Of a DNA stretch of 12,289 bases, positions 3,747-7,264 are shown piece after piece. Source of the DNA: an uncultured Collinsella sp. GTDB taxonomy: Bacteria; Actinomycetota; Coriobacteriia; Coriobacteriales; Coriobacteriaceae. The translations under genes and the position numbers were made by a program. The notes beneath the pieces were generated by a model. It did no database searches. It worked only from the letters and a program-made list of their open reading frames with translations, and had not been told where the DNA came from. Position 1 is the stretch's first letter. Every line of letters begins with the position of its first letter. Location of the stretch: the NCBI GenBank assembly GCA_934617135.1, contig CAKTUC010000040.1, positions 1 through 12,289 of the forward strand, given 5' to 3'.

Positions 3747-4577
3747 CTACAGGGCCTTTTTGGGACAGGCCTTGGTGCACTCCATGCACAGGATGCACTC
3801 CGTGCCGTTGCGACGGTCGAGCGAATTGTCCGTCACGTCGACGTCCATCGGGCAAATCTTACGACACTTACCGCACGAGATGCACTTGTCCTTATCGCAG
3901 GTAACGCGCACGAGTGCCCGCTTGGACATGGGCTTTAAAAACACCGTCACCGGGCAGATGTACTTGCAAAACGCGCGGTTGTCCTTAAGGGCAAACGCGA
4001 GCGCGATGCCCACCACGTAATAGATCACATTGCCCACGATAAAGGCAATCCACATGACGTCGGCAAGGTTGGGAACGCCCAGAAGAAACAGCGCACCCAC
4101 AAAGGCGAGCGACGCCACAAAGGTTACGTAGCGCAGCCAGCCAAACGACCGACGTTCGTGCGTTGCAGGCACCTTGTACGGCAGCAAATCGAGCACCATC
4201 GCCGTCCAACACGCATAGCCGCACCAACCGCGGCCAAATACAAGCGGCCCAAAGATCTTGGCCACGGCGTAATGAATGGTCGCCGCCTCAAAAGAACCCA
4301 GGAAGAGGTAGTACCAAAAGCCCTCGATCTGCATATTCTCGTGACACAGAAAGCCCAGGTAGACGAGCATATATGTGCCGATGGCAAATTGGACCGCATG
4401 GCGCGCATACTTCCAGTTGGCAAGGTAGAGCGCCGTGCCCGCGGCCAGTGCCGTGCCAATGTAGGAGAAATTGCCGAGGTAGAACAGGTTGCCCGTGGTG
4501 CGCCACAGAACAACCGCGACCACCTCGAAGACGATCCAAAGCAGCGCGGGAACCTTGTACTTTGCCATGCCGTTCAT
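3747..4577 (-). CDS. Membrane-bound 4Fe-4S protein of the NapH/NosR/CcoG type
   Basis: A 276-residue polytopic membrane protein that probably passes electrons between the membrane and a partner. Hydrophobic segments lie at about 11-25, 37-53, 62-77, 88-112, 118-133, 150-168 and 173-197. The motif RGWCGYACW (C119, C123) and FCKYICP (C204, C208) are the cysteine pairs typical of NapH-like proteins. The C-terminal tail carries two ferredoxin clusters: C232-x2-C235-x2-C238-x3-C242-P and C261-x2-C264-x2-C267-x3-C271-P. I chose ATG 4577 because AGAAAGG lies 7 bases upstream; ATG 4613 would add 12 lysine-rich residues but has no ribosome site, and ATG 4568 has a weak one. No nitrate reductase, nitrous-oxide reductase or other redox partner gene is adjacent, so the partner is unknown. 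Family call is firm; physiological role is not. Confidence 0.85.
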   Translation of the reverse strand: MNGMAKYKVPALLWIVFEVVAVVLWRTTGNLFYLGNFSYIGTALAAGTALYLANWKYARHAVQFAIGTYMLVYLGFLCHENMQIEGFWYYLFLGSFEAATIHYAVAKIFGPLVFGRGWCGYACWTAMVLDLLPYKVPATHERRSFGWLRYVTFVASLAFVGALFLLGVPNLADVMWIAFIVGNVIYYVVGIALAFALKDNRAFCKYICPVTVFLKPMSKRALVRVTCDKDKCISCGKCRKICPMDVDVTDNSLDRRNGTECILCMECTKACPKKAL

Positions 4578-4721
4578 CCGAGGGCCTTTCTTCTTCGCAA
4601 CCTTTCCTGCCATTATGCGCGTGATCGGCTGAAGTGCGGGCACAGTTTGATGACTCGGCATGTAAGGATTTTGCAGACGACTCGGGCGCGCCGACATGCG
4701 CCGTTTCCCTCCCGCCAAATA

Positions 4722-4776
4722 TCTCAATCTGTAACAGTTAAACCCAATTTCGGCGTCCAGATGTTACAGATCGAGA
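4722..4776. repeat. 55-bp palindromic element, copy 1
   Basis: Left arm TCTCAATCTGTAACA (4722-4736), 25-base centre, right arm TGTTACAGATCGAGA (4762-4776). Fourteen of 15 arm positions pair; the odd one is A-C on the plus strand but G-U in minus-strand RNA. One extra A-T pair (4721/4777) extends the stem. The centre contains TTTCGGC at its midpoint. It belongs to a family of four copies in this window, and I do not recognise the family. Confidence 0.9.
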
Positions 4777-4802
4777 TTTTTATAACCAACCAGTCTGGCT
4801 TG

Positions 4803-4857
4803 TCTCAATCTGTAACAGTTAGAGGGGTTTTATGCGCTCAGATGTTACAGATTGAGA
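4803..4857. repeat. 55-bp palindromic element, copy 2
   Basis: Arms at 4803-4817 and 4843-4857 are perfect 15-bp reverse complements (TCTCAATCTGTAACA and its complement) around a 25-base centre. The centre differs from copy 1 except for a few bases (TTT at centre positions 12-14, GC at 17-18, CAGA at the right edge). It starts 81 bp after copy 1. Confidence 0.92.
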
Positions 4858-4882
4858 TGTTTCCGAAAGGCGGCTCCGAATG

Positions 4883-4937
4883 TCTCGATCTGTAACACGA
4901 AGGGCCGGTTTCGGCAGCCAACTGTTACAGATTGAGA
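4883..4937. repeat. 55-bp palindromic element, copy 3
   Basis: Arms TCTCGATCTGTAACA (4883-4897) and TGTTACAGATTGAGA (4923-4937) pair with one G-T wobble. Flanking TG (4881-4882) and CA (4938-4939) extend the stem to 17 pairs. The centre is again 25 bases with TTTCGGC in the middle. It starts 80 bp after copy 2, so the six arms of copies 1-3 lie 40, 41, 40, 40 and 40 bp apart, in alternating orientation. Confidence 0.92.
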
Positions 4938-4946
4938 CAATTACGG

Positions 4947-4961
4947 CCCCCATTGCACCAA
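4947..4961. repeat. Short recurring motif, CCCCxTTGCACCAA type
   Basis: The sequence CCCCCATTGCACCAA sits 9 bases after palindrome copy 3. It is one base longer than the 13-mer CCCCTTGCACCAA at 3719-3731 and 7283-7295. All three are intergenic. Confidence 0.5.
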
Positions 4962-4973
4962 CCATGTCCAAAA

Positions 4974-4987
4974 TAACAATTTTGTTA
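4974..4987. promoter_or_regulatory. 14-bp palindrome upstream of the gpmA promoter
   Basis: TAACAA and TTGTTA flank a TT centre, just 7 bases upstream of the proposed -35 box of gpmA. The position suits an operator or activator site, but the regulator is unknown. Confidence 0.4.
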
Positions 4988-4994
4988 GTCTTGG

Positions 4995-5023
4995 TTAACT
5001 TTTGAGCCTAAAACGGGTATCCT
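4995..5023 (+). promoter_or_regulatory. Probable promoter of gpmA
   Basis: TTAACT (4995-5000) and TATCCT (5018-5023) are separated by 17 bases; each matches 4 of 6 of the sigma-70 type consensus. Transcription would begin near 5030, giving a leader of about 45 bases with the ribosome site AAGGAGG at 5064-5070. Confidence 0.55.
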
Positions 5024-5075
5024 TTGCGGCGTCAAGCAAACGGCACGCACGCTGTGTCAGATCAAGGAGGCCCCT

Positions 5076-5849
5076 ATGGCGCACCAAGCAGAGCAGCAGA
5101 CGATGCAACTCGTCCTTATCCGTCACGGAGAGTCGGAGTGGAACAAGCTCAATCTGTTCACTGGCTGGACCGACGTCGAGCTCACCGATACAGGCCGCGA
5201 GGAAGCAGCCGCGGGTGGTCGCGCCCTCAAAGAGGCGGGATTCGACTTTGATATCTGCTACACCTCGCGCCTCAAGCGCGCAATCCACACCCTCAACATC
5301 GTGCTGAGTCAGATGGACCGCGAGTGGCTGCCCGTCATCAAATCGTGGAAGCTCAACGAGCGCCACTACGGCGCGCTGCAGGGTCTTAACAAGGCCGACG
5401 CCGCGGCCGAACACGGCGACGAGCAGGTGCTCATCTGGCGCCGCTCCTTCGATGTCTGCCCGCCGGCACTCGAGCCGGGCGACGCGCGCGACCCCCACAC
5501 CCAGGAGCAATACCGCGACATCGCACCCGACCAGCTGCCCTACACCGAGTGCCTCAAAGACACAATCGCCCGCGCCTGGCCCTATTTTGAGGACGAGATT
5601 CGCCCCCAGATGCTCGCCGGCAAACGCGTGCTCATCGCCGCGCACGGCAACTCCCTGCGCTCGCTCGTCATGAAGTTCGAGCATCTCACGCCCGAGGAAA
5701 TCCTCAAGGTCAACATCCCCACCGGCGTGCCGCTCGTCTACACCTTCGACACCGATTTCAACGTCCTCGACAAGCGCTACATCGGTGACCCGGCGACCAT
5801 CGCCGCCAAGATCGATGCCGTTGCCAATCAGGGCAAGGCGCACAAGTAG
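5076..5849 (+). CDS. gpmA: 2,3-bisphosphoglycerate-dependent phosphoglycerate mutase
   Basis: Interconverts 3- and 2-phosphoglycerate in glycolysis and gluconeogenesis, through a phosphohistidine. The 257-residue length fits the dPGM family (about 250). The signature LIRHGESEWN contains the catalytic His17 and Arg16. FTGWTDVELTDTG (28-40), TSRLKRAIHT (63-72), NERHYGALQG (94-103, with the acid-base Glu95) and AAHGNSLRSL (188-197, second His190) are all present, so the enzyme should be active. The start at 5076 has a strong ribosome site (AAGGAGG, 5 bases upstream); Met10 would give a more typical N-terminus but lacks one. It has its own promoter and is followed 75 bases later by mntH on the same strand, probably in one transcript. 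It is the cofactor-dependent enzyme, not the manganese-dependent iPGM type. Confidence 0.96.
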   Translation: MAHQAEQQTMQLVLIRHGESEWNKLNLFTGWTDVELTDTGREEAAAGGRALKEAGFDFDICYTSRLKRAIHTLNIVLSQMDREWLPVIKSWKLNERHYGALQGLNKADAAAEHGDEQVLIWRRSFDVCPPALEPGDARDPHTQEQYRDIAPDQLPYTECLKDTIARAWPYFEDEIRPQMLAGKRVLIAAHGNSLRSLVMKFEHLTPEEILKVNIPTGVPLVYTFDTDFNVLDKRYIGDPATIAAKIDAVANQGKAHK

Positions 5850-5924: not shown

Positions 5925-7181
5925 ATGCTCAACCATCTCAAACAACACTTTGGCTCACATCGCACCGGAGGCCACGGAGGCCTGGACATTGCCCGGCACA
6001 TCGGCCCCGGATTGCTCGTCACCGTCGGCTTTATCGATCCGGGCAATTGGGCCTCCAACATGGCCGCGGGCTCGCAATTTGGCTACGCGCTACTGTGGGT
6101 GGTCACGCTGTCTACGATTATGCTGATCGTCTTGCAGCACAACGCGGCGCACCTGGGCATCGCCACGGGTGCCTGTCTTGCCGAGGCCACGACCCGCTTT
6201 CTTCCCCGCCCCGTCGGACGCGCCGTGCTCGCCAGTGCATATCTCGCAACCGTCGCCACCGCTATGGCCGAGGTCCTGGGCGGCGCGATCGCGCTCCAGA
6301 TGCTCTTTGGGCTGCCCATGCGCGCCGGCTGCGTCATCGTGGCGGCGACTTCGATGGCGATGCTCATGACGAGCTCCTACAAACGTGCCGAGCGCTGGAT
6401 TATCGCCTTCGTTGGCATAGTGGGTCTGTCGTTTTTGGCCGAGCTCGCGCTGGTCAAAGTCGACTGGACGCAAGCCGCCGCAGGCTGGATCACGCCCAGC
6501 ATGCCCACCGGCTCACCTGCAATTGTCGTCAGCATCCTGGGGGCGGTCGTCATGCCCCACAACCTCTTTCTGCACTCCGAGGTCATCCAATCCATGCACT
6601 TCGAAGGCCAAGGCGAGCAGGTTATCGAGGAGCGCCTGCGCTACGAGCTCTTCGACACGCTCTTTTCGATGGGCGTGGGCTGGGCGATCAACTCGGCGAT
6701 GGTCATCCTGGCCGCGACGACTTTCTTTGCCCGCGGCATCGTCGTAGACGACCTCGCCGTCGCGGCCGCCACGCTCTCCCCCATCCTGGGCCCGGCAAGT
6801 TCAATCATCTTTGCCGTGGCGCTGCTGTTCGCAGGCCTCTCGAGCAGCGTGACGGCGGGCATGGCGGCCGGCACCATTACGGCGGGCATGTTCGACGAGG
6901 AATACGACATCCACGACCGGCATTCATCGATTGGCGTGGCACTCTGCTTTGCCGGTGCAGTTGTTGCCTGCCTGGTTGTTTCGAATCCCTTTGAGGGTCT
7001 CATCTGGAGCCAAGCACTGCTGTCGCTCCAGCTGCCGATCACGGTCTTCGTGCTCATACGACTCACCAGCTCGCGCCGCGTCATGGGCAAATACGCCAAC
7101 TCGCGCCCGCTCAACGCGCTGCTCATAGGGATTGGCGTCGTCGTAACGGCGCTCGATGCCGTGCTATTGACCGGGATGTGA
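5925..7181 (+). CDS. mntH: Nramp-family divalent metal transporter (Mn/Fe), MntH-like
   Basis: Proton-coupled uptake of manganese or ferrous iron across the cell membrane. The 418-residue length and about 11 hydrophobic segments match bacterial MntH. The first helix carries DPGN (38-41) and the sixth MPHN (210-213). These supply the metal-binding Asp, Asn and Met of the family; the Met separates true Mn/Fe carriers from the Mg-transporting relatives that lack it. The stretch after MPHN (LFLHSEVIQ) is also family-like. The N-terminal region (HIGPGLLVTVGFIDPGNWAS) is unusual only in Trp and Ser after DPGN. The start has AGGAA 6 bases before ATG. It lies 75 bases after gpmA and probably shares its transcript. 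No MntR box or Mn riboswitch is visible upstream. Confidence 0.93.
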   Translation: MLNHLKQHFGSHRTGGHGGLDIARHIGPGLLVTVGFIDPGNWASNMAAGSQFGYALLWVVTLSTIMLIVLQHNAAHLGIATGACLAEATTRFLPRPVGRAVLASAYLATVATAMAEVLGGAIALQMLFGLPMRAGCVIVAATSMAMLMTSSYKRAERWIIAFVGIVGLSFLAELALVKVDWTQAAAGWITPSMPTGSPAIVVSILGAVVMPHNLFLHSEVIQSMHFEGQGEQVIEERLRYELFDTLFSMGVGWAINSAMVILAATTFFARGIVVDDLAVAAATLSPILGPASSIIFAVALLFAGLSSSVTAGMAAGTITAGMFDEEYDIHDRHSSIGVALCFAGAVVACLVVSNPFEGLIWSQALLSLQLPITVFVLIRLTSSRRVMGKYANSRPLNALLIGIGVVVTALDAVLLTGM

Positions 7182-7209: not shown

Positions 7210-7264
7210 TCTCGATTTGTAACAGATGGAGCCAATTTCCGCCCCTTGCTGTTACAAATCGAGA
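7210..7264. repeat. 55-bp palindromic element, copy 4 (isolated)
   Basis: Arms TCTCGATTTGTAACA (7210-7224) and TGTTACAAATCGAGA (7250-7264) are perfect reverse complements around a 25-base centre holding TTTCCGC. Compared with copy 2, two arm positions have changed on both sides so that pairing is kept (A-T to G-C, and C-G to T-A). It lies 28 bases past the mntH stop, so it might also act at the 3' end of that transcript. Confidence 0.92.

What the first reader, a model, noticed from the sequence alone, without database searches (positions are those of the whole stretch)
4722..4937. Array of 15-bp repeats in alternating orientation with a 40-bp rhythm
Six copies of TCTCAATCTGTAACA or its complement start at 4722, 4762, 4803, 4843, 4883 and 4923, that is 40, 41, 40, 40 and 40 bp apart, flipping each time. 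The gaps inside and between palindromes are nearly equal (25 or 26 bp) but their sequences differ. It looks like a CRISPR-like ruler with inverted alternate repeats, or a multi-site platform for a DNA-binding protein on nearly one face of the helix. It lies between two divergent genes, so it is not simply a terminator. I know of no named element of this shape.
Basis: seen in the sequence. Interest (0 to 1): 0.75.

Follow-up and report, generated by a model that had tools for sequence, protein, structure and literature searches.

The report
Phased protein-site arrays in Collinsella
Gut bacteria of the Collinsella aerofaciens group carry between their genes strings of paired 15-letter DNA signs set 40 letters apart, which look like docking rows for a still unknown DNA-bending protein.

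Summary
The array is real and belongs to a genome-wide family. The unit is 55 bp: TCTCRATCTGTAACA, 25 variable bases, then the reverse complement; units stand 80-81 bp apart in arrays of 1-8. The window has a second, one-unit array at 7210-7264. Two near-complete relatives, G015 and G059, hold 17 and 18 arrays (42 and 44 units). In 138 arrays (364 units, strains overlapping) arm spacing is 40 bp in 360, and linkers are 25-26 bp in 218 of 226. The family was seen only in Collinsella: 24 of 43 genus genomes, none outside the genus in class and phylum samples. A kept hairpin is not supported: variants in one arm are not answered in the other, and the centre avoids self-complementarity. In orthologous arrays core arm bases diverge 1.1%, linkers 14%, flanks 16%. 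Arrays overlap no called gene and avoid the 100 bp before start codons. A/T in centres and linkers is phased near 10 bp. Best reading: arrays of double-stranded sites for an unidentified DNA-bending or wrapping protein at transcription-unit borders. The shape resembles BIME/REPIN, but RAYT linkage, arm palindromes and kept pairing were tested and not met. The protein and the function are not shown.

The parts
4722..4776 (.). Array A, unit 1: arm 4722-4736, centre 4737-4761 (25 bp), inverted arm 4762-4776
4777..4802 (.). Linker between units 1 and 2 (26 bp)
4803..4857 (.). Array A, unit 2: arm 4803-4817, centre 4818-4842, inverted arm 4843-4857
4858..4882 (.). Linker between units 2 and 3 (25 bp)
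4883..4937 (.). Array A, unit 3: arm 4883-4897, centre 4898-4922, inverted arm 4923-4937
7210..7264 (.). Array B, a single unit: arm 7210-7224, centre 7225-7249, inverted arm 7250-7264 (both arms carry the GATTTG variant)
3747..4577 (-). Neighbour: NapH/MauN-like ferredoxin-type membrane protein gene (the longest ORF begins at 4727, inside array A, but the coding start is probably near 4577)
5076..5849 (+). Neighbour: 2,3-bisphosphoglycerate-dependent phosphoglycerate mutase gene, 139 bp after array A
5925..7181 (+). Neighbour: Nramp-type divalent metal transporter gene (mntH-like), 29 bp before array B

Best explanation
The arrays are rows of double-stranded DNA sites for a sequence-specific DNA-binding protein that has not been identified. 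SHOWN: each half-site reads WWYR-TCTCRATCTGTAACA-KYTAG; two inverted half-sites 40 bp apart make one rigid 55-bp unit; units follow each other at 80-81 bp; the letters of the arms, not their mutual pairing, are kept between strains; A/T in centres and linkers is phased near 10 bp; arrays lie between genes and keep off the 100 bp before start codons. INFERRED: a dimer grips the two arms and bends the DNA over the A-tract centre; neighbouring dimers pack on one face of the DNA (about 40.2 bp = 4 x 10.05), so that the array becomes a bent or wrapped nucleoprotein patch; it works at borders between transcription units as an architectural or insulating element rather than as a promoter-overlapping operator or a terminator.
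For: Spacing: 40 bp in 360 of 364 units, linkers 25 or 26 bp in 218 of 226 (strains overlap). Half-site logo. Arms as sites, not stems: among 57 units with distinct centres the A/G position is the same in both arms in 32 and different in 25; other variants are in one arm 42 times and in both once, 1.1 expected. Centres are less self-complementary than re-paired half-centres, 0.317 against 0.404, sd 0.017. Conservation: core arm positions diverge 1.1%, linkers 14.1%, outer flanks 15.6%. Phasing: the strongest period in centres plus linkers is 10.0-10.05 bp. Place: no overlap with called genes in 25 ortholog groups; 3 of 22 start-codon sides within 100 bp against 9.3 expected, P 0.00015. No functional theme among the neighbours examined.
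Against: No binding protein is known and none could be sought by presence and absence, because the array-bearing genomes form one tight group. The insulator or architectural role is inference only. Unit number varies between strains, one site is decayed to half a unit in G015 and G059, and one G059 unit is split by an insertion, so single sites are dispensable. Half-centres of one genome are more alike than shuffles predict, so units also spread by copying, as selfish repeats do. An 80-bp repeat can only show periods that divide 80, which weakens the phasing argument. Units do fold as hairpins in silico.
Confidence: 0.58

Rival explanations
1. BIME/REPIN: repetitive extragenic palindromes copied by a REP-associated tyrosine transposase (RAYT); the unit would be a REPIN-like inverted pair amplified into BIME-like clusters.
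For: Same overall shape: regular spacing, alternating orientation, intergenic, inverted pair with diverse spacer (passages). Unit number varies between strains and half-centres recur within a genome. Y1 transposases occur in 37 of 43 genus genomes.
Against: No TCTC arm with up to 2 mismatches within about 3 kb of 10 RAYT-sized Y1 genes (of 13 Y1 loci in G001, G015, G024 and G059); two of the four inspected have other inverted repeats of their own. Y1 genes also occur in array-free genomes. A single arm does not fold (median 0.0 kcal/mol). GTAG in 54 of 572 half-sites. Arm changes are not compensated. Solitary arms are rare: 84 of the 92 arm matches (up to 2 mismatches) in G015 lie in pairs, and all 56 exact ones do.
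Confidence: 0.17
2. Operators of one global transcription factor that regulates the neighbouring genes.
For: Sequence-specific arms under selection; arrays lie upstream of many genes; regulators (DeoR, LacI, GntR type) are among the neighbours.
Against: Neighbours have no common theme; 8 of 24 classified arrays lie between convergent genes; arrays avoid the 100 bp before start codons. A distant activator site is not excluded.
Confidence: 0.15
3. RNA or single-stranded DNA hairpin: terminator, mRNA stabiliser or processing signal.
For: Window units fold at -21.9 to -33.1 kcal/mol, z -5.6 to -7.0.
Against: No arm co-variation and an anti-complementary centre; the flank after the right arm reads YRWW rather than a T run (logo); the one terminator-like site found in 4560-5120 is no more than shuffles give; no Rfam family at gathering score; arrays also lie between divergent genes. 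The positive control for co-variation, family 3, is modest: 17 variants shared by both arms against 8.6 expected, but 36 in one arm only.
Confidence: 0.06
4. Recombination sites: the arms serve for inversion, or for exchange of units and gene blocks.
For: One centre is inverted between strains; 42 of 381 units at matching places have a different centre; in 60 of 145 array pairs one neighbouring 1.5 kb differs.
Against: Flips are 3 of 465 matched centres and amount to one event. Synteny breaks are no commoner at arrays (16 of 216 sides) than at the next two gene borders (18 of 189, 11 of 112).
Confidence: 0.03
5. CRISPR-like record with 25-bp spacers.
For: Constant repeats with differing 25-bp intervals.
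Against: Centres share half-site features and are largely inherited at orthologous places; the window array has no match in the phage collection.
Confidence: 0.01

Closest known systems
BIME (bacterial interspersed mosaic element; clusters of REPs)
   Same: Intergenic, regularly spaced repeats in alternating orientation, several units per place, number varying between strains; known BIMEs bind IHF or DNA gyrase (PMC2817692, passages).
   Different: The arms are not palindromes, arm changes are not compensated, no RAYT gene is linked, and spacing is exact to one base in nearly all units.
REPIN (REP doublet forming hairpin)
   Same: Two inverted conserved ends with a short, highly diverse spacer (PMC8049555, passages).
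   Different: Pairing between the ends is not kept and the centre avoids complementarity; units form phased tandem arrays.
Chromosome-organising sites such as those of SlmA, Noc or MatP
   Same: A few dozen dispersed, mostly intergenic protein sites with no regulon theme (copy numbers recalled; papers seen only as a search listing).
   Different: Those sites are single short palindromes (recalled); here 20-bp half-sites stand 40 bp apart in arrays, and the ori-ter bias is weak.
BirA operators
   Same: Two inverted half-sites with an unconserved spacer of fixed length (recalled, from no call).
   Different: Shorter half-sites and spacer, no tandem arrays, a defined regulon (recalled).

Membership tests
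REP/BIME | Extragenic, regularly spaced repeats in alternating orientation | tested here: met
REP/BIME | Each repeat is itself an imperfect palindrome | tested here: not met
   Half-site RNA fold median 0.0 kcal/mol; 3% of 572 below -3
REP/BIME | Cognate RAYT gene flanked by the repeats | tested here: not met
   0 of 10 RAYT-sized Y1 loci have a TCTC arm (up to 2 mismatches) within about 3 kb; Y1 loci of the other array-bearing genomes were not inspected
REP/BIME | GTAG or CGTC tag (one large class of REPs) | tested here: not met
   GTAG beside the arm in 54 of 572, CGTC anywhere in 71 of 572 half-sites
REP/BIME | Usually more than 100 copies per genome | tested here: inconclusive
   84 and 88 arms in detected pairs in G015 and G059
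REPIN | Inverted pair of conserved ends with a diverse spacer | tested here: met
REPIN | Pair forms a hairpin whose pairing is kept | tested here: not met
   Arm variants independent, centre anti-complementary
REPIN | Mobilised by a RAYT | not testable with these tools
   Only linkage was testable
Intrinsic terminator | G+C-rich stem followed by a T run | tested here: not met
   Flank logo; terminator scan at shuffle level
CRISPR array | Repeats in one orientation | tested here: not met
   Repeats alternate
CRISPR array | Spacers derived from foreign DNA | tested here: not met
   No phage match for the window array; the only plasmid-collection match is a Collinsella record that itself carries the arrays; other arrays not tested
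Operator of a transcription factor | Sites overlap or adjoin promoters of a coherent regulon | tested here: not met
   Avoid the 100 bp before start codons; no theme among neighbours; promoters themselves were not mapped
Nucleoid-occlusion or macrodomain site | Biased distribution along the ori-ter axis | tested here: inconclusive
   Mean relative distance from dnaA 0.40 and 0.38 (P 0.072 and 0.044); largest array-free gap 0.26 and 0.27 of the chromosome (P 0.127 and 0.086); the two genomes are not independent
Nucleoid-occlusion or macrodomain site | Bound by a dedicated DNA-binding protein | not testable with these tools
   No candidate found

The most novel reading that the evidence does not exclude
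The Collinsella aerofaciens group has a dedicated chromosome-architecture system: a group-specific protein reads 20-bp half-sites in rigid 40-bp inverted pairs and wraps the DNA of some 17-18 intergenic arrays per chromosome in phased, nucleosome-like patches that insulate neighbouring transcription units.
Probability: 0.22. Interest if true: 0.82.

Novelty: new variant of a known kind. Interest (0 to 1): 0.6.

Why it matters
If the arrays bind one protein, they are a sequence-defined handle on how a common gut actinobacterium organises its chromosome. They also warn against reading every inverted repeat between bacterial genes as a hairpin: here the letters are kept and the pairing is not. 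The strict spacing makes a direct test possible, by inserting half a helical turn into the centre or the linker.

Tried and rejected
CRISPR-like record: rejected. Hairpin, terminator and known RNA family: rejected on co-variation, flank logo, terminator scan and Rfam, although units can fold. RAYT/REP linkage: not met. Recombination hot spot: one different neighbour in 60 of 145 pairs looked striking, but the gene-by-gene control showed no excess at arrays. Flipping centres: one event. Unit polarity: A-tract polarity of adjacent units is the same 11 times and different 13 times. Terminus avoidance: weak. Insertion and deletion of whole arrays: most 'empty' sites were an artefact of the ACCACCACAAAGG repeat in the flanks; the site of array B was real. 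Same architecture with other arms elsewhere: G026 has 8 pairs TGTCGCTWTCAA-N34-, all within 48 kb; in 200-kb samples G017, G028 and G030 gave none, G066 only runs of N, G033 one family at 3 places besides runs of N. Search for the binding protein by presence and absence: not feasible. Single-linkage clustering of centres merged nearly all arrays and was dropped. A first unit count with loose arm limits gave false spacings of 34 and 46 and was replaced. Paper searches on this element listed nothing that describes it, judged from listings; one search returned no paper; the library lacks most subscription journals.

Full report
CHECK. Two of the other three matches are the arms of one more unit at 7210-7264, again 40 bp apart; the third is an overlap inside it. 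Read as units, array A is three copies of TCTCRATCTGTAACA-N25-TGTTACAGATYGAGA separated by 26 and 25 bp.

DISTRIBUTION. The window's own assembly is not held; the nearest genome, G001, shares 25% of its sampled 31-letter words. Of 58 relatives, 17 carry the strict pair. With an 8-letter core of each arm and a gap free to vary from 22 to 28, 24 of 43 genomes of the genus match: G014 and G028 once each, the other 22 from 19 to 52 times. In a class sample 21 of 296 genomes match and in a phylum sample 2 of 396, all of them in this genus. A scan of viral contigs gave 6 stretches; only L048 was examined, and it holds two units 81 bp apart. The window array has no match in the phage collection and one in the plasmid collection, a C. 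aerofaciens record of 899,693 bases with 31 places. The array-bearing genomes are one tight group: their Dxs is 97-98% identical to that of G015 in the 4 tested, against 56-68% in 17 of the 21 other genus genomes; in G014, G025, G030 and G033 only a remote paralogue was hit.

ANATOMY. G015 (contig C1, 2.43 Mb) holds 17 arrays with 42 units and G059 (one contig, 2.31 Mb) 18 arrays with 44. Arms nearly always come in pairs. In G015 all 56 exact arms, and 84 of the 92 matches with up to 2 mismatches, lie in units. In G059, 62 of 66 exact arms do; of the four that do not, two are the halves of one unit split by a 1.4-kb insertion and one is the decayed unit beside mntH. Over 138 arrays and 364 units from all loci (strains overlap, so these are not independent) arm spacing is 40 in 360, 41 in 3 and 39 in 1; linkers are 25 (128), 26 (90), 24 (6), 23 (1) and 180 (1). 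The half-site logo, from 89 units, is WWYR-TCTCRATCTGTAACA-KYTAG, then G/C-rich bases, then A/T at the centre, most often AAA or TTT. In centres plus linkers of 130 unit pairs at 80 bp the A/T profile is strongest at a period of 10.0-10.05 bp (power 1.2; 0.74 at 10.3, 0.15 at 10.5). An 80-bp repeat can only show divisors of 80; of these the tenth-base one is the strongest.

LETTERS, NOT PAIRING. In a kept hairpin, changes in one arm should be answered in the other. In 57 units with distinct centres the degenerate purine is the same in both arms in 32 and different in 25; other variants lie in one arm 42 times and in both once (1.1 expected). In the 89 units of the window, G015 and G059 the figures are 48 alike, 40 different and one other, and 55 against 4 (1.7 expected). 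The centre is less self-complementary than re-paired half-centres (0.317 against 0.404, sd 0.017). As a control, a different inverted repeat of the same genomes, family 3 (14 distinct units), has 17 variants shared by both arms against 8.6 expected, but also 36 in one arm only, so the control is positive but modest. The window units do fold in silico, as inverted repeats must.

SELECTION. In 139 orthologous array pairs with equal unit number, 295 of 381 units have matching centres. In these 295, core arm positions differ in 1.1%, degenerate arm positions in 8.5%, the central five bases in 4.3%, the rest of the centre in 8-10%. Linkers differ in 14.1% (227 compared; 19 of unequal length left out) and outer flanks in 15.6%, compared without gaps, which inflates them. 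Units with decayed arms escape detection, which flatters the arms, but the detection limit (up to 4 mismatches in an arm) lies far above the observed divergence.

PLACE. One array was taken from each of 25 ortholog groups, with genes from my own simple caller. None overlaps a called gene. Of 24 that could be classified, 10 lie between co-directional, 8 between convergent and 6 between divergent genes; gaps of 200 bp or more in the G015 sample are 49, 15 and 15, which is not clearly different. Of 22 start-codon sides 3 lie within 100 bp, against 9.3 for random placement in the same gaps (P 0.00015); of 26 stop-codon sides 14, against 11.5 (P 0.14). Neighbours include a helicase, a copper-type ATPase, glutamate synthase, a metal transporter, EF-Tu, Dxs, a beta-glucosidase, a PTS permease, a phosphorylase, an aconitase, several regulators and transposases. 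Arrays lean towards the origin (P 0.072 and 0.044), which I do not press.

CHANGE. At the site of array B other strains have 2 or 4 units, G015 and G059 keep a decayed unit without its right arm, and one strain has a centre inverted. Over all orthologous pairs 3 of 465 matched centres are flipped, all involving one locus; 279 centres have no match. Half-centres within one genome are more alike than column shuffles predict (for example 26 pairs at two differences against 5.4 in G015), so units do spread by copying. Synteny breaks are no commoner at arrays (16 of 216 sides) than at the next gene borders (18 of 189, 11 of 112).

READING. A dimer on two half-sites 40 bp apart, bending DNA at the A-tract and packed at 80-81 bp, accounts for the fixed spacing, the kept letters, the freer centre, the phasing and the pairing of arms. 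The placement speaks against an ordinary operator, and the logo and lack of co-variation against a terminator. The shape is that of BIME/REPIN (PMC2817692, PMC8049555 and PMC3733652, passages read), but arm palindromes, tag, RAYT linkage and kept pairing were tested and not met. I therefore call it a new variant of dispersed extragenic arrays that probably works as a protein platform. The protein is unknown, and the architectural role is inference.

Noticed in passing
G026 contig C1 331405-379281 (L144-L146, L178-L185): Eight inverted pairs TGTCGCTWTCAA-N34-TTGAWAGCGACA, all exactly 58 bp, intergenic or nearly so, in one 48-kb stretch of a Collinsella-genus genome that lacks the TCTC arms; 1 of 43 genus genomes. 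In several pairs the two arms differ at the W position.
   Followed up: partly
L056:7280, L065:9170, L122:6735 and others, 14 distinct units: Family 3: AGTTGCGGTGAAATAGGGACTGTT-like arms with a 19-base centre, spacing 43 in all 14, single units in aerofaciens-group loci.
   Followed up: partly
L166:13703, L171:59, L171:16835: Family 2: AACCATCACAACATTCGACG-like arms, spacing 43, 3 places in the G015 sample.
   Followed up: no
L157, L159, L160, L163, L171 (G015 sample): Abundant short hairpin repeat ACCACCACAAAGG-...-CCTTTGTGGTGGT, 18 arm matches in 400 kb; REP-like by look.
   Followed up: no
L358:2625-3545 and L360:2533-3570 (G015): RAYT-sized Y1 transposase genes flanked by their own inverted repeats, unrelated to the TCTC arms.
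   Followed up: partly
L129:4059-5474 (G059 contig C1 about 1828658-1830073): One unit is split in its centre by a 1.4-kb insertion with an open frame whose start looks like a zinc-ribbon transposase, bounded by a short direct repeat of the centre.
   Followed up: partly
L065:4003-6012 (G015) against L131:3996-4211 (G059), interval between aconitase and clpB: G059 has one three-unit array where G015 has two two-unit arrays around two extra genes; units of the G059 array recur in the G015 arrays in another order.
   Followed up: partly
window 3747-5849 against L057: In the window the ferredoxin-type and phosphoglycerate mutase genes stand on either side of the array between gltB and the Nramp gene; in G015 the array lies directly between gltB and the Nramp gene.
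   Followed up: no
NZ_OY725717.1 (L368): An 899,693-base record called 'plasmid 6' of C. aerofaciens carries gltB, smpB and 31 array places; it looks like a piece of chromosome.
   Followed up: no
L017 (end of contig C21 of G014): A single unit plus about 200 bp of aerofaciens-like DNA (96% identical) at a contig end of a genome that otherwise lacks the family: transfer or contamination.
   Followed up: no
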